DNA from: Desulfovibrio sp. UIB00 | GTDB taxonomy: Bacteria; Desulfobacterota; Desulfovibrionia; Desulfovibrionales; Desulfovibrionaceae | DNA length: 64,000 nucleotides | Reading direction: 5' to 3' | NCBI RefSeq assembly: GCF_022508225.1 | Contig: NZ_JAETXJ010000003.1 | Location: 1 to 64,000 of the forward strand | Notes under the pieces: generated by a model | The model's database searches: none | What the model saw: the letters and a program-made list of their open reading frames with translations, nothing else | What the model was told of the DNA's origin: nothing | In this document: one piece after another, positions 9,626 to 62,991 of the stretch | How the letters are laid out: every line of letters starts with the position of its first letter | Numbering within the stretch: the first letter of the stretch is position 1 | Program-made: the position numbers and the translations under genes

Positions 9626-11464
9626 ATGCTGCTGTCCACCAAACTTTTTTCCAAGCTCACTCCCCAATTGCCCTTGGACGGTGAAATTTACCCCAAGGCC
9701 AAGAGTGATCGCCGTCTCGCCCCCAATATCCCCGGACGGGGCGGGTCGAGGCGTGGTGCCCATCAGCGGTATGAAGCAGAGCTTCAGGTTTCGGTGTACG
9801 ATGCTTCGGAAGAATCCGCCCCAATACGCTGCCTGAGCGAAGACCTTTCGTCATCTGGCATGCTGCTGCATTGGGCTGATGATGCGCCGCTCCCTGCCGA
9901 GGGGCAAAAGCTTGTGCTGCGCTTTACCATGCCGCCGGGCACCTTGCCGGAAGGGTATGAATCACGCGTGCGTATCCCCGCAGATGTTGTGCGTATTGTG
10001 GAAGGCGAGGATGGTGAAAAAAAGGTTGCCGTCAATTTTGTGCGCAATCTGGATAACTATCTGCGCCTGAGAAAGTGGCTGCGCCTGGTTGCAACTTCTG
10101 TAATTCTGCTTGCAATTTCTGTATATGCCGTTGCCTACATGCGGCAGGAAAGCCTGTTTTACTTCATGTTTGACGTGCCCGTATTTACCTATGGGATTGT
10201 TGCGTCCGTTTTTCTGGTGAGCAGATTTGTATTCTCATTTTTTTACCGCAATATTCCTGTTGATCCTGACTTTACGCCCGGGGTCACTATTGTCATTCCC
10301 TGCTTTAACGAAGAAGAATGGATTGAAAAAACCATCCAGTGCGCCATCAATCAGGATTACCCTCAGGAGAAACTCGAAGTTATCCTTGTGGACGACGGCA
10401 GCACGGATAAATCCATGGAGCGTGTGCGGCGCATCGAAAAGCAGATTCGTAAGGAAATAACCGGCGACCGCTTTGTGGTCATTGAACAGCCCTACAACAT
10501 GGGCAAGCGCCACGCCCTTGCGGCGGGGGCCCAGCATGCCAAGTTTGAGCTGCTGGTCTTTGTGGATTCGGACAGTTTTCTGGAGCCGGACGCCGTGCGG
10601 GAAGTGGTGCAGCCCTTCCGCGACCCCAAGATGGGGGCTGTCTCCGGCAGAACAGAAGTGCAGAACAAATGGACAAACGCTCTCACCAAGATGCAGGCCG
10701 TGCGCTACTATGTGGCCTTTCGGTTCATCAAGGCGGCGGAATCCGTTTTTGACGGCGTGACCTGCCTTTCCGGCCCCCTTGCCTGTTACCGCAAGGATCT
10801 TGTGCTGCACTACCTTGATGAATGGCTCAACCAGAAATTTTTTGGCTATCCGGCCACGTTTGGCGACGACAGAAGCCTGACAAACTATATCCTTGCCCAC
10901 CACCGCACAGGCTATCAGGATGCGGCGGTGTGTTCCACCATTGTGCCTTCGAGCATGCGTACCTTCATCCGGCAGCAAATGCGCTGGAAGCGCTCGTGGC
11001 TGCGTGAAACCCTGCGCGCCAGCTCCTTTATGTGGAGAAAAGAGCCCTTCATGGCGCTTTCTTTCTACATTGGCTTTTTGCTGCCGGTGCTGGCCCCGCT
11101 GGTTGTTGTGCGCACCATGGTGGTTATTCCAATTGAGCTTGGCCTGTTTCCCTACAAATACCTTGCGGGCATTCTTGTCACCAGTATGCTCATGAGCGCC
11201 TCCTATCTGTTGTTCAAACGCAGCAATCTGTGGCCTTACGGCATTGTTTTTTGCGTTTTCTATCTGGGGGTGCTGTTGTGGCAGCTTCCTGTGGCAGTGC
11301 TCACGTTCTGGAAGTCGGAATGGGGCACGCGCAATACGTCTGCCGACGTGGCCGCACAGGAAAAGCTGCGCTACGAGCAGAAGATGTTCGTCATGCCCTC
11401 TGAAAGCGCCGTTGCCGCAGGAGCAGGGCAGCCCGCCGATCATGGCAAGCACGGTGAGGGCTAG
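9626..11464 (+). CDS. PilZ-domain family 2 glycosyltransferase, PgaC-like polysaccharide synthase
   Basis: An inner-membrane processive synthase of 612 residues. An N-terminal PilZ-like domain (about 40-140) has DLSSSG (residues 73-78), the DxSxxG half of the cyclic-di-GMP motif. The Arg half is RRGAHQR (42-48), with the first Arg displaced by one from RxxxR. Two membrane helices follow (about 153-172 and 185-205). The GT2 domain has DDGS (256-259), DSD (314-316), GDD and QQMRW (about 450), the set expected for PgaC/HasA-type enzymes. C-terminal helices form the translocation channel. It is the first gene of a five-gene exopolysaccharide operon. The fused PilZ suggests direct cyclic-di-GMP control of synthesis. 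Confidence 0.88.
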   Translation: MLLSTKLFSKLTPQLPLDGEIYPKAKSDRRLAPNIPGRGGSRRGAHQRYEAELQVSVYDASEESAPIRCLSEDLSSSGMLLHWADDAPLPAEGQKLVLRFTMPPGTLPEGYESRVRIPADVVRIVEGEDGEKKVAVNFVRNLDNYLRLRKWLRLVATSVILLAISVYAVAYMRQESLFYFMFDVPVFTYGIVASVFLVSRFVFSFFYRNIPVDPDFTPGVTIVIPCFNEEEWIEKTIQCAINQDYPQEKLEVILVDDGSTDKSMERVRRIEKQIRKEITGDRFVVIEQPYNMGKRHALAAGAQHAKFELLVFVDSDSFLEPDAVREVVQPFRDPKMGAVSGRTEVQNKWTNALTKMQAVRYYVAFRFIKAAESVFDGVTCLSGPLACYRKDLVLHYLDEWLNQKFFGYPATFGDDRSLTNYILAHHRTGYQDAAVCSTIVPSSMRTFIRQQMRWKRSWLRETLRASSFMWRKEPFMALSFYIGFLLPVLAPLVVVRTMVVIPIELGLFPYKYLAGILVTSMLMSASYLLFKRSNLWPYGIVFCVFYLGVLLWQLPVAVLTFWKSEWGTRNTSADVAAQEKLRYEQKMFVMPSESAVAAGAGQPADHGKHGEG

Positions 11465-53385: not shown

Positions 53386-56300
53386 ATGGGTCATTATTTC
53401 TGCGGATATTGGATGCGTTTTTGTCCTGCGTTGTTTCAGATTCTCCTTCTGTTTCTGTGTACGTTAAGTATACCCGTTCATATCAATGCAGCGAGCGCTG
53501 ACAGTTTTAAAACCAATGAATACTGGAAAAGCACAGGGTTGGATTTCATTCACGCTGCCGATGCATACGCTCTGGGATATACCGGGGCTGGCACCACGCT
53601 GGGTATAATTGACTCTTCCGTACGCGGCGACCACCCTGAGCTGGCTGGAAAAGTCATAATGATGGACTTGCCGCTTGATGAGACCACGGGGCAGGAATAC
53701 GTGCCAAACTGGGCATACGATAAGCATGGCAGTCATGTGGCGGGCATCATGGCAGCCATGCGAAATGGTGTTGGCATGCACGGTGTGGCTTTTGACGCCA
53801 ACCTTGTTTCGGCAGCCATGCTTGGGGGAGCGTACGGGAGCACCGAAAATCTTGTGACGCCTGATTTGTTGAGCCTCTTTGCTGCGTATCCAGAAATTCG
53901 CGTCATCAACAACAGTTGGGGTGCGGATTTTTACCCCTCGCTTGACCCTGCCAAAGATATTCCCGCAGATATCATATCTGCCCAGGATAATGCGATCAAA
54001 GCGCTCTGCAAGCTCAGTGAGGAGTACGACAAGGTCGTTGTGTTTGCCGCTGGCAACAGCACCATGATAGCTCCCAGTGTCGAGGGCATGATGCCGCGTT
54101 ATGTGCCGGATCTGAAAGGCTGGATCAGCGTGGTTTCCCTTAATATTGCCGGAATCACTACAGCGACGGACGGAACACGCACCATTGGTCCGTCTGGGGT
54201 CAGTTATTTCAGTAACCTGGGGAGCAAAGCCTCTCTTTGGACCGTTGCGGCTCCCGGCAGCTATATCAATTCGCTCAATGCCACTACCAACGGCTATATG
54301 CTGGCCAGCGGCACCAGCATGGCAGCGCCCTATGTGAGCGGCACTGTGGGTCTGGTGGCGCAGGCTTTTCCCTGGATGACCGGTAAACAGCTGGCTGATG
54401 CTGTATTGACCACGGCGGATAATACTTTTGTAGCGCCAACGCACCTTGTTCAATACTCAGTTGATAGTTATGGCAATCCCAATAAGGTTGTTATTACTAT
54501 TATAGATAACAGTGTTCCTGCTCCGAATGATGTGACAATCAAGCAGTGGATTGGAGAAGTTTATCAAGGCGCAACGGCAGTTGCTTTAAAATATCTTGTT
54601 GATCAGGGCGATAAAGCAGTGAACAACCTGACCAGAGAAGAAGTATTTGGGCAGGGATTGCTGGATGCGGGCAAGGCCGTGCGCGGCATCGCCCGGCTGG
54701 ATGCCAACCGTATGTCGGCCTCGGATGTGGTGGCGTTGCCTGAATTGGGCCCTGGCAATTACGCGCTTGAAACGTTTGACACCAAGGGCTACTTCGCCGA
54801 ATTCAGCAATGATATCAGCCAGCGCCAGTGGAGTGATGCCTACCATCATGCCAGTTTTCTGGCCGGGGCGGACGCCACGGCCCTGCGCGGCAAGGACGTG
54901 GGCTTGCGTAAAACGGGTGCGGGCCTATTGGTTCTCAGCGGCATCAATAGCTATTCCGGGGCTACCGTGGTTGACGGCGGAGGCCTGGCCGTGAGCAAAA
55001 GGGCAGACGGCACTGGCGGCGTACTGCAAAACAGCGATGTGCTCGTGCGTCAGGGCGGTGTATTGCTGGGTGATGGGGTAATACAGAAGAAAGTCGTCAA
55101 TTACGGCACTGTTGCTCCGGGCTATCGCGGCCTGACGCTCACGGTAAATAATTACACCCAGTCAGGTCAGGGCACGCTGCAAATCGGTTTCAATTCCAAT
55201 AATCAATATTCTGTGCTCAGTGCAAACTCTGCAACTCTTGACGGAGCCCTGCGGTTTTCTCCTTCGCCGGGATTTTATGCAGAAAACTATTCAATAAGTA
55301 TGAACAGTGTGCAGGCAACAAGCTCCACAGGCGCATTTAACAGCGTTGGGGTTAGTTCTTCTTCGCCAACATTGAATTTCAGCGTCGCGTCAAGCAATGG
55401 CCTCGGGGCGGCATTATTGGGCCAGCAACGTGCATCAAACGCGTACAGCCGCTATGCCGACAGTACCACCACAAGCCGTGTTGGACGCGCTCTTTACCAG
55501 ATAGCAGGGCAGGCAACAGGCGACATGCAAAACCTGTTTCAGGCTCTGGACTGGAGCGATGCATCCGGCAGCGGCATTGCTCCGGCAATGGAGCAGTTGA
55601 GCCCCAACAGCTATGATGCCGTGGCTCGGGCCGGGCTTGAAGCGCAGCGGCAACTTAACCTGCTTATGGTGCGGCGCTTCTTGGGGGCCAGCGGCCCGCA
55701 AGGCGTGAACGGCACTGGCGTGTCCAGCGGTGATGAAGCTGCTGGCTGGCAGGCATGGGCGCTGCCCTTTGGCAGCTACAGCAACATGAACGCCAATGGC
55801 GGCTCAGCGGGCTTTACGGCGTCTGGTGCGGGGTCGGCCCTTGGTGTTGACCGCCTGTGGGAGAGCGGACTGACAGCAGGATTTGATGTGGCGCTCGCAG
55901 GCCGCCGCACGGAAATCCATAGTGCGGGCGAGGCAAGGGCGGAAACTCTGGCCGCATCTGTTGGCGGGCACGCGCTGTTCAAGCCTCGCTGGTGGGATGG
56001 TGCCTATGTGATGGGCATGGCCCGCGTGGGCTTTGAGGATGTGCAGATGCAGCGGGCCGTCAACTTCAATGGCTATGCGCGCAATCACAGCAGCAGATGG
56101 ACGGGCCTGACAGCAGATACGCTTGCTGGCGGCGGCAAGGACTGGAACTGGGCAACCTCCTGGGGCGGCGTGGAAGCTGGCCCTCTGACATGGCTGGAAT
56201 ATAGCCTGAGTTCCAGGCCGGGATTTACCGAGGGCGGCTCCGGGGCCTCAGCACTCAGGGTTGATGCCGCCACTTACAACAATCTCTCGTCAGTCTTGGG

Positions 56301-56601
56301 GGCGCATGCAAATCTTGCCCGCACCCTGGATAATGGCACAACGCTCGCATGGGATACTCTGGCAGGCTGGCGGCATGACTGGCTTGAGGGAACGTTCAGC
56401 AGCAGCGCCAGATTCAAGGGATACAGTCCTGGTTTTGAAAGCCGGTCAGATATGCCGGGCCGGGATGCCATGCTGATTCATAGCAGTGTGCGGGCGAGCC
56501 ATACCAGTGGTTTTTTTGCTCAGGTTGAGCTTGGAGCGGAGTTATTTCGATCTCAGAGTTCTTCCTGCTTCGGCGGCTTCAGTTGTGGCCTGGAATTTTA
56601 G
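53386..56601 (+). CDS. Subtilisin-like serine protease autotransporter
   Basis: 1071 residues. A signal peptide ends near HINAAS (about 36). The S8 protease domain (about 45-420) has the intact triad Asp76 (GIIDSSV), His114 (HGSHVAG) and Ser311 (GTSMAAP). A beta-helical passenger with an autotransporter repeat segment follows (GLRKTGAGLLVLSGINSYSGATVVDGG). The C-terminal beta-barrel (about 790-1071) ends in LEF. It is a type V secreted surface or released protease. GGAG precedes the ATG. It stands alone, with AT-rich DNA on both sides. Confidence 0.92.
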   Translation: MGHYFCGYWMRFCPALFQILLLFLCTLSIPVHINAASADSFKTNEYWKSTGLDFIHAADAYALGYTGAGTTLGIIDSSVRGDHPELAGKVIMMDLPLDETTGQEYVPNWAYDKHGSHVAGIMAAMRNGVGMHGVAFDANLVSAAMLGGAYGSTENLVTPDLLSLFAAYPEIRVINNSWGADFYPSLDPAKDIPADIISAQDNAIKALCKLSEEYDKVVVFAAGNSTMIAPSVEGMMPRYVPDLKGWISVVSLNIAGITTATDGTRTIGPSGVSYFSNLGSKASLWTVAAPGSYINSLNATTNGYMLASGTSMAAPYVSGTVGLVAQAFPWMTGKQLADAVLTTADNTFVAPTHLVQYSVDSYGNPNKVVITIIDNSVPAPNDVTIKQWIGEVYQGATAVALKYLVDQGDKAVNNLTREEVFGQGLLDAGKAVRGIARLDANRMSASDVVALPELGPGNYALETFDTKGYFAEFSNDISQRQWSDAYHHASFLAGADATALRGKDVGLRKTGAGLLVLSGINSYSGATVVDGGGLAVSKRADGTGGVLQNSDVLVRQGGVLLGDGVIQKKVVNYGTVAPGYRGLTLTVNNYTQSGQGTLQIGFNSNNQYSVLSANSATLDGALRFSPSPGFYAENYSISMNSVQATSSTGAFNSVGVSSSSPTLNFSVASSNGLGAALLGQQRASNAYSRYADSTTTSRVGRALYQIAGQATGDMQNLFQALDWSDASGSGIAPAMEQLSPNSYDAVARAGLEAQRQLNLLMVRRFLGASGPQGVNGTGVSSGDEAAGWQAWALPFGSYSNMNANGGSAGFTASGAGSALGVDRLWESGLTAGFDVALAGRRTEIHSAGEARAETLAASVGGHALFKPRWWDGAYVMGMARVGFEDVQMQRAVNFNGYARNHSSRWTGLTADTLAGGGKDWNWATSWGGVEAGPLTWLEYSLSSRPGFTEGGSGASALRVDAATYNNLSSVLGAHANLARTLDNGTTLAWDTLAGWRHDWLEGTFSSSARFKGYSPGFESRSDMPGRDAMLIHSSVRASHTSGFFAQVELGAELFRSQSSSCFGGFSCGLEF

Positions 56602-56919: not shown

Positions 56920-59900
56920 ATGAAGATTGCCGACATCACCTTTGGGATGCCCAGAAGCAAGGCGGCGGCGCAGAATCCGGCGGGAGCTGCTGCCGAAGGA
57001 CAACCAGCCGCGTTGCCTTCGAACCTCTCCGCTGCTGGCCATGCCATACCGTGTTCATCCAGTTTGTCTGGCTTGCCTGGCAGATGGGCCAGCTTTGAAG
57101 CCCTGTTTTGCTCTGTCGCGGAAGAGAATCCGGATTATATCGCCATTTCTGGTGGCGGCAAAAGCCTGAACTTCAGGGAACTGAAGGATTTTTCCGCGCG
57201 CATAGCCGCCTTTGTACTGGCGCAAAACTATGGGCCGGAAGCGGCAGTAGGGGTGCTGTGCGAGCGGGGGGCCATGTATCTTGCCGCCGCCATTGGCATC
57301 ATGCGGGCCGGTGCGGTGTATGTTCCCGTGGAGCGCGAACTGCCGCGCCCCCGGCAGGAAGCCATGCTCAGGCCCGTGCGGTTGCTGGTGACGGACAGAG
57401 CTTCACTGCCCCAGGCAGAATACCATCGCTACCGTAACCCCAACATTGCCCACGTGCTTTGTCTGGATGCGCCATCCTTTGCGGATGCTCTGGAAAGTGG
57501 CGGTCTGAGCAGCACGGAATACTGGGAGCACCTTGCAGAGCCGGGCAGCGACCGGGGGTGGCTGGACGATGTGGACGCCCGCCCCCTTGATCTGGCGCAA
57601 CTTTGCAGGATGGCAGACAGCCTGCTGCAAAAAACGGGTCTTGCCTCCAATCGCGCCCCCGGCAGCCCCCCAGGAAATACACAGGGCAGGGGTAAAAGCG
57701 TGCTTGATATCGGCAGCGGCTCGGGCGTGATGGCGCAGGCGCTGGCCTCTGCCGCCAGTCGGTACGTAGCGGTAGACATAGCCCGAAATGAACTGGACAG
57801 GATGCAGGCCTTGCCCTGCGGCGCTTCCGTGAGCATCCACCGCATGGAAGCCATAGACATCTGCTTTTTTGAAGACGAGCGTTTTGACCTTGTGGTGCTC
57901 AACGGCGTTGTGGATTGCTTTCCCGGTTACAATTATCTGCGCAGGGTGCTTGACCACGCTGTAGAACGCCTCACGGCGGGCGGCAGCATTTTTGTGGGCG
58001 CTGTGCGTGATATGGACCGCAAGGACGACCTGCGGGCAACCATCAGGGAACATGCTCTTGCCACAGGCGATCAATCGGCCTTGCTGCGTTTTGAGGGCTC
58101 GGCAGAGCTGTTTGTGCCACGGCGTTTCTTTAGTGCCTGGGCGGCAGAATGCCCATATCCTGTTGAAGTGAAATTTTCACCCATTGCGGCCTCTGCGCCC
58201 TCTGGCAATGGTCAGGCGGATGCCTTTCGCTATGACCTGCAGATTTTCAGGATCGCCCACGATACCAAAGCACACGGTACCAAAGCCCTGCGTGAGAGCT
58301 TTGGCTTGAAGGATCTGGAGGCCTGCCCCGTAGCCCCGCTTGCAGCGGTCAGGCCGGACGCAGCCGCCTATATTGTCTACACCAGCGGTTCCACAGGGCA
58401 GCCCAAGGGCGTTGTGGTGGATCACCGTCACCTCCTGCACATAATCCATGCCCTGTGGGAATTTTCAGATGGGTGCGGCACTGTGGGCCTGGTTGCGCCG
58501 CTCTCGTTTGATGCGTCCATCCAGCAACTGGCGGTTTCGCTGTTTTGCGGCAAACCTCTGTATGTCATGGCAGACGAGGAACGCAAAAATCCTGCGGCAT
58601 TCTGCGCCGCTGCCCGCAAGAGGGGTATTGACCTGTGCGACATGACCCCGGCCTTTTTTAATGTGCTGGTGGACTATTTGCAGGAGCACTGCCAGCCCCT
58701 GCCGCTCAAACGCCTGCTGCTGGCGGGCGAGGTGCTGCGGCCAGATGTCATTCAGAACTTTTATGCCATACCCGGCAATGAAGATGTGGTGCTGTTCAAT
58801 GTGTACGGCCCCACAGAGTGCACGGTAGACAGCAGCGCCTTTCGCATTGACCGCGCCAATTATGCTGATTTTACTGCCTTTCCCATTGGCAGGCCGCTTG
58901 AAGGCGTGAGTATTTTTGTGCTGGATAAACATCAGCGCCCGGTGCCGGACTCAGTTGCCGGTGAACTATGGATCGCGGGAGCGGGCGTTTCGCGCGGGTA
59001 TCTGAATGGCGAGAGTGCCGGTGCTTTTACCGAATATGCCGGGCGGCGCTGCTATCGCACTGGCGACAATGGCTTTATCCAGAACGGACTTGTCTATTAC
59101 CGGGGCCGGGAGGATCAGCAGGTCAAGATCAGGGGCAACCGGGTCGAGATCGGCGAGGTGGAAAAGGCCGTGGGGAGTTTCCCTGGTGTGCGGCAGGTGG
59201 CCGTGGCGGCGGACTTTTATCAGGCTGGCAACGACAAAAGTCTCGCTGCCTATGTGGTGGGTGCTGTGAATCCAGCGGATTTGCGCAGCTATCTTGAGCA
59301 GCAGTTGCCGCCCTTTTGCGTGCCGGATTATATTGTGCCGATGGTGGAGCTGCCCCTCTCGCCCAACCGCAAGGTGGATAAAAGGGCGCTGCCGTCCCCG
59401 CTGGGCAGGGCCGAGGCCGTTGCAGGGCGCTGCCCGCAAGGGGCTGTGGAGCAGACGCTTGCCGCCATCTGGAAGCGGCTGCTGGGCATGGATGTATGTG
59501 ATGCGGAGGCCAGCTTTTTCAGCATTGGCGGGCACAGCATCATGGCCGTGCGTCTTGTTGCCATGATTGAAAAAGAGTTGCGCGTCCATATTGCCGTCAA
59601 CGAGCTGATGGCCCATTCCAGCATTGCGCGGTTGGCTGAACTTGTAGAAGGCAAAACCGGCACCCGCACTAGCCCCATCATCAAACTTTGTCATAGTGAA
59701 GGTGGAAAAAATCTCTTCCTGTTTCATCCTGTGGGGGGCAGCGTGTTTTGCTACAGCGATCTGGCCCGACTGCTGGATGGTCGCTACACCCTCTATGCTG
59801 TGGAGCCTGCGGGCTTTCAGGCTGAAAAAACTGCTCTGAATACAGAGCTGTACAGGGTTCAGGATTTGGCCGCGATTTATCTTGATGAAATCCTTAAGGT

Positions 59901-60483
59901 AGCCACGGAGAACATTGTTTTTGGAGGCTGGAGTTTCGGCGGCCTCCTGGCCTATGAGGCGGCCTGCCTGTATGCAGCGCGCGGGGGCGAACCAGGCCCG
60001 ATTTTGATTTTGGACACAGTGCTCGACAACACAAGGGACAAGCAGCTTGCAGCCAAGGACGATGTGGAACTGCTGAAAAACCAGCTCGCGGAAGCGCTGG
60101 CCTTTGATGTGGAAAAGCTGCGGGCCATGAACCGGGCTGAAAGAATGGCGTATCTGGTGGAATGCGGCGAAAAAGCCGGATTACTGCCGCCCAATTTCAG
60201 CCCCGCGCATATGGAAAACCTGTTGCAGACTTACAGGCTCAATGCCATTGCCGCAGCACGTTATGACAACCCAACGCCGTCTGATCTGCGTATTCTGTAT
60301 ATTCGCGCGCTGGATTTTGCCAGTAATCCTTACATTGATTTTAATGACCAATATCAGGGTTGGAGCCGCTGTTTGCCTGAAAAAAACATCACCCTCCGCT
60401 GGACTGGGGGCACACATCAAAGCATGCTTTCCCCTGGCCTTGCAGATGGCGTGGCAAAGCTTATTCGCGACTTTTTGAGGTAA
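56920..60483 (+). CDS. Single-module NRPS: adenylation domain interrupted by a methyltransferase, carrier protein and thioesterase
   Basis: 1187 residues, no condensation domain. The A domain starts at about 60 (A2 AGAVYVPVE at about 130), is interrupted by a SAM methyltransferase (about 225-440; motif I VLDIGSGSG at 261, then FDLVVLNGVVDCFPGYNYL, typical of NRPS methyltransferases), and resumes with A3 YTSGSTGQPKG at about 487. Specificity residues read D531 A532 Q535 D574 L600 A602 V628 V636 D637 K818, DAQDLAVVDK, one change from the glutamine code DAQDLGVVDK. Carrier Ser873 (GGHSI). Thioesterase Ser1005 (GGWSFGG). Predicted to activate Gln, methylate it and release a small, possibly cyclised product. 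No phosphopantetheinyl transferase is in the window. Confidence 0.9.
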   Translation: MKIADITFGMPRSKAAAQNPAGAAAEGQPAALPSNLSAAGHAIPCSSSLSGLPGRWASFEALFCSVAEENPDYIAISGGGKSLNFRELKDFSARIAAFVLAQNYGPEAAVGVLCERGAMYLAAAIGIMRAGAVYVPVERELPRPRQEAMLRPVRLLVTDRASLPQAEYHRYRNPNIAHVLCLDAPSFADALESGGLSSTEYWEHLAEPGSDRGWLDDVDARPLDLAQLCRMADSLLQKTGLASNRAPGSPPGNTQGRGKSVLDIGSGSGVMAQALASAASRYVAVDIARNELDRMQALPCGASVSIHRMEAIDICFFEDERFDLVVLNGVVDCFPGYNYLRRVLDHAVERLTAGGSIFVGAVRDMDRKDDLRATIREHALATGDQSALLRFEGSAELFVPRRFFSAWAAECPYPVEVKFSPIAASAPSGNGQADAFRYDLQIFRIAHDTKAHGTKALRESFGLKDLEACPVAPLAAVRPDAAAYIVYTSGSTGQPKGVVVDHRHLLHIIHALWEFSDGCGTVGLVAPLSFDASIQQLAVSLFCGKPLYVMADEERKNPAAFCAAARKRGIDLCDMTPAFFNVLVDYLQEHCQPLPLKRLLLAGEVLRPDVIQNFYAIPGNEDVVLFNVYGPTECTVDSSAFRIDRANYADFTAFPIGRPLEGVSIFVLDKHQRPVPDSVAGELWIAGAGVSRGYLNGESAGAFTEYAGRRCYRTGDNGFIQNGLVYYRGREDQQVKIRGNRVEIGEVEKAVGSFPGVRQVAVAADFYQAGNDKSLAAYVVGAVNPADLRSYLEQQLPPFCVPDYIVPMVELPLSPNRKVDKRALPSPLGRAEAVAGRCPQGAVEQTLAAIWKRLLGMDVCDAEASFFSIGGHSIMAVRLVAMIEKELRVHIAVNELMAHSSIARLAELVEGKTGTRTSPIIKLCHSEGGKNLFLFHPVGGSVFCYSDLARLLDGRYTLYAVEPAGFQAEKTALNTELYRVQDLAAIYLDEILKVATENIVFGGWSFGGLLAYEAACLYAARGGEPGPILILDTVLDNTRDKQLAAKDDVELLKNQLAEALAFDVEKLRAMNRAERMAYLVECGEKAGLLPPNFSPAHMENLLQTYRLNAIAAARYDNPTPSDLRILYIRALDFASNPYIDFNDQYQGWSRCLPEKNITLRWTGGTHQSMLSPGLADGVAKLIRDFLR

Positions 60484-60488
60484 CTATA

Positions 60489-62480
60489 TTACACTCTGGT
60501 AGATTGAATTGTGGCAGTGCCTTTCCAGCGAGCCAGGAATCGGGCCACGGTATCCCGCGCAGCATTCTTTTCCTCTTCAGAAACATTGGCGTCAGTATCA
60601 CCGTTGACCGTGCTGTCAATCACAAGCTTGTTCAAGTTCAAGGTATTGTTGCCTTGTCCGGTAAATATCTGACTGTCGAGTATGAAGCCCTTGATAACCA
60701 GTGTGTTATCGCCACTACCAGCCGAAATTGAACTACGGGCAAGAAAGCCCTCAATGGTCACATCGTCCTTGCCGTTGCCGCCTATATACTCAAGAAGAGC
60801 TGCGTTGCCGTCAACGGTAAACTGGTTGTCGCCGTTGCCGAGATTGATATACAAGCCGATGGCATCACTGTGGATATGGACACTGTCGTTTCCTGCCCCC
60901 GTAATGATGCGGTTTGCGCTGAGGATTTCGTCAATAACAATGGTGTTATCTCCATCTCCCGTTTTGATAGAGCCATTTTGCAAGGCAATATGGATATTGT
61001 TTTTCCCATCGCCCATCTTCCATTCGCCAGCATCCATAAGAAAGCCCACATCAAAACTGTTGTTTCCATTCCCTGCGGTCAGGTTTTGAATGGTATTTCC
61101 AGATATGCGGTTGTCACCATTGCCAAGAGTAACGTCTGAGGCGTAGTTTGCAATCAGAGTATTATTGCCATCGCCAAGCTGAATTTTTTGTCGCACACCA
61201 GTCAAATAATCGCCATGAAAAGTGGCAGCATGGCTGTTGAGTTTGACCGTGTTATTACCATTGCCAGTGCTAAGAATATTTACAGCTTCAGATTCAACCT
61301 TGTTATTGCCGTCGCCAAGCTGGATAACAGGTTGGTACTCGCTTTGTGCTATCAAAGGGGAAAAATCATCTTGTGTAACTTTTGTGACCCTAACAGTGTT
61401 ATCGCCATTGCCAGCAGTGATAGATTTCGTTGTGCCAGTTACAATATTATTATTGCCGTTTCCGGCTTCTATGTGATGACCAAATGCAACATCAACAGAA
61501 TTGTTGCCATCACCTAGATTGATGAAGTTTGCTCCTCCACCAGAAATAGAATTGTTGCCATCACCTAGATTGATGAAGTTTGCTCCTCCACCAGAAATAG
61601 AATTGTTGCCATCACCGAAAGAAATCTTCCCTGCACCAACATCAACAAGCTTGTTATTGCCGTTTCCCGCCGATATGAGGCTGATGCCTCCGCCCTGCGC
61701 TTTCAGGGTATTATCGCCTTCACCCAGATCAACCTTATTTGCATAATCAAAAGAAATGACCGTGTCATTGCCCGTGCCTGCATGGATTTCATCAACCCCA
61801 TTGAGATTGATAATCACATCGTTGCCGTTGGTTCCCTGCAAAATCTCGGTGGGCTCTATTCTCATAAAGTTATCATCAAAGTAATCATTGCCTTTTTTTT
61901 CTGCCCCGGACCACACAAGCAGGTTCCCCTGATCATCTTCGCTGATGACCGTGTTGGCCTTGATAGCCAAGGTTTGTGTGCTGCCGTCTGCCTTGGTGAT
62001 TTCGGCGGTAATTTTTTGATCTGGCGCAAGATAAAAGGGTTTTTCTTCGCCATTGGCATAGGCGCTGGCAGTGATGGAAACTGTTGCGCCGGAATTAAGC
62101 GTAGCGGTGGCAAGAACATTTTTAGCCGATTTGGCTGATGAGTCTGCGGTCTGGCCTGTGGCCGTTGTTGCCACTTGTTCTGAGGCAGGACTTCCCGCCT
62201 GAGAAGCTTTCAGGGCTTCCTTACCCATTTGCGAGATTGTCACGCTGTCGCCCTGAACCGTTGTTTTTTCTGACGTGAGCGTTGGGGCAGGGGTGTCAGT
62301 TGCAGTCTTTGTTGCGTTATTGCGTTGGCCCAATACCTGCTCCGCCCGCATGGAAAACTCCACAGAATCACCAGCAGTCAGCGCCGCGTTTTGTTCCACT
62401 TCTGTGCGGGAGGATTCTTTCAGAGATGAGAGTAAGGAGCCAGTTATCGGAACCAGACTGTTGAGCGGTGATAATGCCAT
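60489..62480 (-). CDS. RTX-like repeat protein, probable type I secreted surface protein
   Basis: 663 residues with no signal peptide. From about 210 onward it is a long array of GxGNN/GDGNN turns (LGDGNNSI, AGNGNNNI, TGAGNDSV), a variant of the calcium-binding RTX nonapeptide, which folds as a parallel beta-roll. The N-terminal 200 residues are Ser/Thr/Ala-rich. Such proteins are usually exported by a type I system using a C-terminal signal; none of the transporter genes is in the window. The frame opens at 62543, but the ATG at 62480 has AGGAGG upstream. Its stop is 5 nt from the convergent NRPS stop. Confidence 0.82.
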   Translation of the reverse strand: MALSPLNSLVPITGSLLSSLKESSRTEVEQNAALTAGDSVEFSMRAEQVLGQRNNATKTATDTPAPTLTSEKTTVQGDSVTISQMGKEALKASQAGSPASEQVATTATGQTADSSAKSAKNVLATATLNSGATVSITASAYANGEEKPFYLAPDQKITAEITKADGSTQTLAIKANTVISEDDQGNLLVWSGAEKKGNDYFDDNFMRIEPTEILQGTNGNDVIINLNGVDEIHAGTGNDTVISFDYANKVDLGEGDNTLKAQGGGISLISAGNGNNKLVDVGAGKISFGDGNNSISGGGANFINLGDGNNSISGGGANFINLGDGNNSVDVAFGHHIEAGNGNNNIVTGTTKSITAGNGDNTVRVTKVTQDDFSPLIAQSEYQPVIQLGDGNNKVESEAVNILSTGNGNNTVKLNSHAATFHGDYLTGVRQKIQLGDGNNTLIANYASDVTLGNGDNRISGNTIQNLTAGNGNNSFDVGFLMDAGEWKMGDGKNNIHIALQNGSIKTGDGDNTIVIDEILSANRIITGAGNDSVHIHSDAIGLYINLGNGDNQFTVDGNAALLEYIGGNGKDDVTIEGFLARSSISAGSGDNTLVIKGFILDSQIFTGQGNNTLNLNKLVIDSTVNGDTDANVSEEEKNAARDTVARFLARWKGTATIQSTRV
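61498..61616. repeat. Perfect tandem 51-bp duplication inside the RTX-like gene
   Basis: Two identical 51-bp units (61498-61548 and 61549-61599) plus the first 17 bp of a third. Each encodes 17 residues including SGGGANFINLGDGNN. The exact nucleotide identity points to a recent, in-frame slippage or recombination event. Confidence 0.95.
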
Positions 62481-62991
62481 GACGCACCTCCTGCTTGCTG
62501 GTGAAATCTGCACGGGGGCCGTCATTGGCCCAGCGTGGGGCAACGCACCGGCTTATTCGCGCGCCGCTCAGCGTTGTTGCCTGCGCCCTTTGGTGGAACA
62601 TTTGTTTGGGCTTAATCAAATATTATATTTAATGACTAAAAAATATATATTTTAATAAATAATAAATAAATATTGGTCAATTGTTTTAGTTGTTTTTATT
62701 TGCTGTACTTATAAATATTTCGAATAGTAATGGTGTAAAAAAATAATAAAAACAGAGTGTTAAAAAAAGATGATCGGAAGCAATTGTCGTTCTTGCAGCA
62801 CACGTTACAATTTTTTTGAACTGGAGAAGATGGATTGGCGTTGCGAAGGGCTATTACGCAGTGCATGCAAACTATTTGAAGTGCAATGCTTGATGGGCAG
62901 TCGATAATAAATCAAACGTATGCGCAACAATGCTTAATTTGAAGTGATTTATAGTTAATTTAATGTGTTATGTGGATATTCTTGCCTGAAA
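62481..62991. other. AT-rich non-coding region upstream of the RTX-like gene
   Basis: About 510 nt, very AT-rich between 62600 and 62760. It presumably holds the promoter of the RTX-like gene. No coding frame is convincing. Confidence 0.5.

What the first reader, a model, noticed from the sequence alone, without database searches (positions are those of the whole stretch)
56920..60483. NRPS with near-glutamine code and a methyltransferase between A2 and A3: an indigoidine-synthetase-like plan without the oxidase
Seen: A(MT)-T-TE with no C domain, code DAQDLAVVDK. Known: indigoidine synthetases (IndC/BpsA) are single-module A(Ox)-T-TE enzymes that activate Gln (code DAQDLGVVDK) with an oxidase inserted between A8 and A9. 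NRPS methyltransferases most often sit between A8 and A9, rarely between A2 and A3. Inference: the product is a methylated Gln derivative, perhaps a methylated 3-aminoglutarimide released by thioesterase cyclisation, which would not dimerise to a blue pigment without the oxidase.
Basis: partly seen in the sequence, partly recalled or inferred. Interest (0 to 1): 0.85.

Follow-up and report, generated by a model that had tools for sequence, protein, structure and literature searches.

The report
Orphan copy of NRPS terminal half-module
The gene encodes an intact enzyme that should activate an amino acid (probably glutamine or glutamate), methylate it and release it; it is not a relative of the blue-pigment enzyme but an unlinked second copy of the last half-module of a large thalassospiramide-like peptide assembly line found elsewhere in the same genome, and its own job is still open.

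Summary
Observation confirmed. ORF 56920-60483 (1187 aa) is A(MT)-T-TE: adenylation domain split between A2 and A3 by a methyltransferase, then carrier and thioesterase domains, no C domain, code DAQDLAVVDK. All catalytic motifs are present.

Interpretation partly supported. The "indigoidine plan" is a resemblance, not descent. Wherever a neighbourhood could be read, apart from the window type, relatives follow a giant (mostly 5.2-5.8-kaa) NRPS-PKS ending in a C domain; in genome G306 both are one 6440-aa protein. The closest described relatives are thalassospiramide terminal modules of Tistrella and Oceanibaculum. So the protein is the detached half of a terminal C//A-MT-T-TE module. The window's genome carries the complete assembly line with a 62% paralogue elsewhere; the window copy is an unlinked duplicate with syntenic orthologues (90-91%) in two sister species, under purifying selection (dN/dS 0.15-0.20). 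The MT is closest, by sequence and fold, to the backbone N-methyltransferase of TioS, so N-methyl-Gln/Glu is the likely unit. Whether the orphan serves the giant NRPS in trans or works alone is undecided; an apparent absence of C domains in one sister genome proved to be masked sequence and was discarded.

The parts
56920..60483 (+). A(MT)-T-TE protein, 1187 aa, orphan paralogue of a terminal NRPS half-module
56920..56955 (+). N-terminal element MKIADITFGMPR (residues 1-12); resembles the end of a C-A linker and may be a docking element (inferred)
   Evidence: same pattern [MV]-[KR]-[IL]-x-D-[FLI]-x-[FL] in the detached relatives; protein identical in three orthologues with four synonymous codon differences
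57088..57399 (+). A domain, N-terminal part up to A2 (residues 57-160)
   Evidence: Pfam AMP-binding profile 4-149
57400..58314 (+). methyltransferase inserted between A2 and A3 (residues 161-465), probably backbone N-MT
   Evidence: Pfam; best solved match 5WMM/TioS by sequence E 1.3e-14 and by fold E 1.6e-14
57700..57726 (+). SAM-binding motif I VLDIGSGSG (residues 261-269)
58327..59424 (+). A domain core A3-A10 (residues 470-835), code DAQDLAVVDK
59452..59646 (+). T (carrier) domain, residues 845-909, pantetheine site Ser873 in GGHS
59710..60480 (+). thioesterase domain, residues 931-1187, Ser1005/Asp1032/His1166

Best explanation
The gene is an old, unlinked duplicate of the second half (A-MT-T-TE) of the terminal module of a thalassospiramide-like NRPS-PKS. 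Steps supported by homology: the A domain adenylates an amino acid, most likely Gln (Glu possible), and loads it on the T domain; the inserted MT transfers a methyl from SAM, most likely to the alpha-nitrogen; the TE releases the product. Inferred: as in the clustered copies, the missing C domain is supplied in trans by the C-terminal C domain of the giant NRPS on another contig, so this copy acts as an alternative terminal module for that line, using its retained C-A-linker-like N-terminus. The family assignment is nearly certain (about 0.95); the in-trans role is a lean (about 0.45-0.5 against about 0.3 for stand-alone action).
For: Full-length homology to the terminal module of Tistrella mobilis (34% over 94%) and Oceanibaculum pacificum (33%), both known thalassospiramide producers (PMC5577590); TtmB is listed as a2-a3 interrupted with N-methylation (PMC11355689). 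Clustered relatives lie directly after a giant NRPS-PKS ending in a C domain: G000 C2 with ATGA overlap, G061, G062, G073, G069, G013, G048, G160, G204, G210, G107, Tistrella. In G306 both halves are one 6440-aa frame, C followed by A(MT)-T-TE. The tree nests the orphans inside the clustered family, sister to the genus's clustered copies (100/99 and 94/93). Same code in both paralogues. dN/dS 0.15-0.20 with A, MT, T and TE all constrained. N-terminal element: 0 amino-acid changes against 4 synonymous ones in 12 codons. The giant NRPS is in the same genome in both species where it can be checked.
Against: No direct evidence of interaction with the giant NRPS; the orphan lies on another contig. 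The two paralogues share one code, so a second copy with the same specificity would add little diversity. Co-occurrence is one phylogenetic event, not independent cases. The N-terminal motif may be a relic. The full-length model is poor (pLDDT 57), so docking could not be judged.
Confidence: 0.48

Rival explanations
1. The orphan has become a stand-alone enzyme: it loads Gln (or Glu), N-methylates it and the TE releases the free N-methyl amino acid or, with Gln, the cyclised 3-(methylamino)piperidine-2,6-dione, in the manner of an indigoidine synthetase without oxidase.
For: No C domain and no conserved NRPS partner gene at the locus in three species; all active sites intact and under purifying selection; IdgS with a dead oxidase makes (S)-3-aminopiperidine-2,6-dione from Gln by its TE (PMC10989907); somewhat more change in TE than in A core at otherwise invariant sites (7/87 against 3/150, p 0.04).
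Against: The TE signal is weak and another lineage shows a similar ratio. The C-A-linker-like N-terminus is kept. The apparent lack of C domains in sister species G064 was masked sequence, so no genome is known where the orphan must work alone.
Confidence: 0.3
2. The orphan mainly serves as an in-trans loading enzyme: its A domain charges carrier domains of the giant NRPS modules that lack A domains.
For: The giant NRPS has only two A domains for five carrier domains; loading of one protein's carriers by another's A domain is described in other systems (PMC12283262).
Against: Species with the same giant NRPS architecture lack the orphan; its own T and TE are as constrained as the A domain.
Confidence: 0.08
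3. True indigoidine-synthetase relative that exchanged its oxidase for a methyltransferase.
For: A-X-T-TE order, no C domain, near-Gln code.
Against: The insertion is at a different site (A2-A3, not A8-A9); whole-length homology and tree place it inside the thalassospiramide-type family; G306 fusion.
Confidence: 0.02

Closest known systems
Thalassospiramide terminal module TtmB/TtcC (Tistrella, Thalassospira, Oceanibaculum)
   Same: A domain interrupted between a2 and a3 by an MT, then T and TE; separate protein after a giant NRPS-PKS ending in C; homologous along its whole length (Tistrella, Oceanibaculum)
   Different: Substrate code differs (DAQDLAVVDK against DAIDVGAVGK in Tistrella); the window copy is not next to its NRPS; a linked paralogue exists in the same genome
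TioN and MarQ (a2-a3 interrupted A domains)
   Same: MT at the same insertion point
   Different: They S-methylate side chains according to the review; the MT here is closest to the backbone N-MT of TioS
Indigoidine synthetase (IndC/BpsA/IdgS)
   Same: Single protein A-X-T-TE without C domain, possibly Gln
   Different: X is an FMN oxidase between a8 and a9; no oxidase here; different descent

Membership tests
Thalassospiramide-type terminal half-module | A domain split between a2 and a3 by an MT, followed by T and TE | tested here: met
Thalassospiramide-type terminal half-module | Homology along the whole protein to the Tistrella/Oceanibaculum terminal modules | tested here: met
   34% and 33% over nearly all of the length
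Thalassospiramide-type terminal half-module | Encoded directly after an NRPS that ends in a C domain | tested here: not met
   Met by the paralogue at C2 and the clustered relatives; not met by the window copy or its two orthologues. It is therefore filed as an unlinked paralogue of this protein family, not as part of an assembly line.
Thalassospiramide-type terminal half-module | Backbone N-methylation of the loaded residue | not testable with these tools
   Nearest structure is the TioS N-MT, suggestive only
Indigoidine synthetase | FMN oxidase domain inserted between a8 and a9 | tested here: not met
   no oxidase match; A8-A10 uninterrupted in the sequence
Indigoidine synthetase | Gln-activating A domain | tested here: inconclusive
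   Code one residue from DAQDLGVVDK, which is used for Glu and Gln
Indigoidine synthetase | TE cyclises Gln to the aminopiperidinedione | not testable with these tools
   Needs an enzyme assay

The most novel reading that the evidence does not exclude
A terminal half-module of a multimodular NRPS has been copied out of its assembly line and has become a self-sufficient A-NMT-T-TE enzyme making an N-methylated Gln/Glu derivative such as 3-(methylamino)piperidine-2,6-dione.
Probability: 0.3. Interest if true: 0.68.

Novelty: new variant of a known kind. Interest (0 to 1): 0.45.

Why it matters
It shows a thalassospiramide-like type of assembly line across sulfate-reducing bacteria, with a different predicted terminal residue, and a natural duplicate of a detached terminal half-module kept intact for a long time. 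That is a natural test of whether such half-modules can be shared in trans or can turn into single-residue enzymes, a question that matters for NRPS evolution and engineering.

Tried and rejected
Absence of C domains in sister genome G064 first looked like proof of stand-alone action; the region where the cluster should lie, G064:C2 60001-96000, reads as N, so the argument was dropped. An apparent faster change of the TE in the orphans (p 0.009 with 8 comparison sequences) shrank to p 0.04, with a similar ratio in G213, when more relatives were added; kept only as a weak hint. The full-length structure prediction was too poor to judge the N-terminus. An attempt to fetch real indigoidine synthetases for a direct comparison failed because the tool needs a genome handle as centre. 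Promoter and terminator scans gave no more than chance. The first scan of genome contigs with a single sequence found nothing; the alignment-based scan did.

Full report
WHAT IS THERE. The frame 56920-60483 on the + strand encodes 1187 aa. Pfam places an AMP-binding domain in two pieces, with a SAM methyltransferase between them, then AMP-binding_C, PP-binding and Thioesterase, and no Condensation domain. The ten-residue code is DAQDLAVVDK. Motifs A3-A10, the SAM motif VLDIGSGSG, the carrier serine and the thioesterase Ser1005/Asp1032/His1166 are intact. The code differs by one residue from DAQDLGVVDK, which a 2025 survey assigns to both Glu and Gln (PMC12283262).

THE FAMILY. The window's own genome holds a 62% paralogue at C2:616209-619742. 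It starts in a 4-bp overlap with the stop of a 5593-aa NRPS-PKS whose domains run, as far as the matches show, C-A-T-C-T-C-C-T-C-A-T-KS-DH-KR-T-C, with two A domains and a final C domain. Beside it lie a KamA-type radical SAM aminomutase, a type II thioesterase, a phosphopantetheinyl transferase and an ABC transporter. The same arrangement of a giant NRPS followed by a separate A(MT)-T-TE was read in G061, G062, G073, G069, G013, G048, G160, G204, G210, G107, Oceanibaculum pacificum and on Tistrella mobilis plasmid pTM1, where the A(MT)-T-TE follows a 5215-aa NRPS. In G013, G204 and Oceanibaculum only part of the giant gene was in the stretch read. G213 and G219 (apparently the Desulfocurvus locus L027) show the same order with the giant frame split. 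In G306 both parts are one 6440-aa frame, in which the C domain is followed by the A domain with its inserted MT. The A(MT)-T-TE is therefore the second half of a terminal C-A(MT)-T-TE module, usually split at the C-A junction. Of 348 genomes searched in the class, 18 carry the family.

RELATION TO KNOWN SYSTEMS. Tistrella and Oceanibaculum are known thalassospiramide producers with sequenced clusters (PMC5577590), and a review lists TtcC and TtmB as A domains interrupted between a2 and a3 with N-methylation (PMC11355689). That the pTM1 genes are the ttm genes is my identification from organism, order and architecture. Residues 2424-4417 of the giant NRPS (carrier, C, A, T, KS and following) align with the Tistrella protein at 42% over about 2000 residues. 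By my reading of the pocket motifs, the A domain before the KS is Ser-type (DVW...), which would fit the unsaturated Ser-derived unit of thalassospiramides; this is inference. The Desulfovibrio-type lines differ at the terminal code (DAQDLAVVDK against DAIDVGAVGK in Tistrella). No paper in the held library was found that describes these clusters in sulfate reducers, but that library is partial.

THE METHYLTRANSFERASE. Its best solved relative is TioS (5WMM), an interrupted A domain that N-methylates the backbone: E 1.3e-14 by sequence. A domain-only model (pLDDT 76, pTM 0.77) again matches 5WMM first, E 1.6e-14, with the next match at 3.5e-9. Relatives keep an NRPS N-MT-like signature GW.S..(T)G.P (the signature is recalled, not tested against a profile). 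Backbone N-methylation is thus more likely than side-chain methylation, although the other described a2-a3 enzymes TioN and MarQ act on sulfur.

THE ORPHAN COPY. The window gene has syntenic orthologues in G061 (91%) and G064 (90%) between the same flanking core genes. The genes next to it vary: a subtilisin-like autotransporter upstream in G000 and G061 only, different genes downstream. No NRPS, transporter or tailoring gene is shared at the locus. In the tree the three orphans form one clade nested in the clustered family, sister to the clustered copies of the same genus (100/99 and 94/93). dN/dS among orthologues is 0.15-0.20, and 0.04-0.26 in the individual A, MT, T and TE domains. The copy is old, intact and selected. 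Its first 12 residues match the pattern of the other detached proteins and have not changed in protein sequence among the three species despite four synonymous changes, while residues 13-56 drift. The pattern resembles the end of a normal C-A linker such as PLSRLAILPEHER in G048. I read this as a retained docking element; a relic cannot be excluded.

DOES IT WORK ALONE OR IN TRANS? Co-occurrence first seemed to settle this, since G064 showed no condensation domain. A check of the expected location showed 36 kb of N up to the point where homology with G000 resumes, so that result says nothing. In the two species that can be read, the orphan lives with the giant NRPS. I lean to use in trans as an alternative terminal module, with stand-alone action not far behind. 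With an N-methyltransferase the product would be the 3-methylamino compound.

VERDICT. It is a new variant of a known kind: an unlinked, conserved duplicate of a thalassospiramide-type terminal half-module with a Gln/Glu-like code.

Noticed in passing
Own genome G000:C2:592541-619742 (L001, L002, L023): Complete thalassospiramide-like NRPS-PKS cluster with A-less modules, a KamA-family aminomutase, type II TE, PPTase and ABC transporter. The aminomutase passes the KamA subfamily cut-off but no lysine, arginine or glutamate equivalog cut-off.
   Followed up: partly
G306:C21:26000-58000 (L146, L147): Natural fusion of giant NRPS-PKS and A(MT)-T-TE in one 6440-aa frame.
   Followed up: yes
G064:C2:60001-96000 (L138, L139): 36 kb of N where the cluster would lie; any absence claim for this genome is unsafe.
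   Followed up: yes
window 53386-56601 (+): Subtilisin-like protease with autotransporter-like C-terminus directly upstream; 91% homologue at the same place in G061, none at the locus in G064.
   Followed up: partly
window 60489-62543 (-): 684-aa protein rich in GDGNN/GNGNN repeats, not found at the same locus in G061 or G064.
   Followed up: no
G000:C13:11000-32000 (L004, L005): A second NRPS gene cluster with several A and C domains.
   Followed up: no
L036 (uncultured Kordia contig) 10304-11218: A methyltransferase in a Bacteroidota NRPS, apparently also between A2 and A3, with the signature GWISSYTGEP.
   Followed up: no
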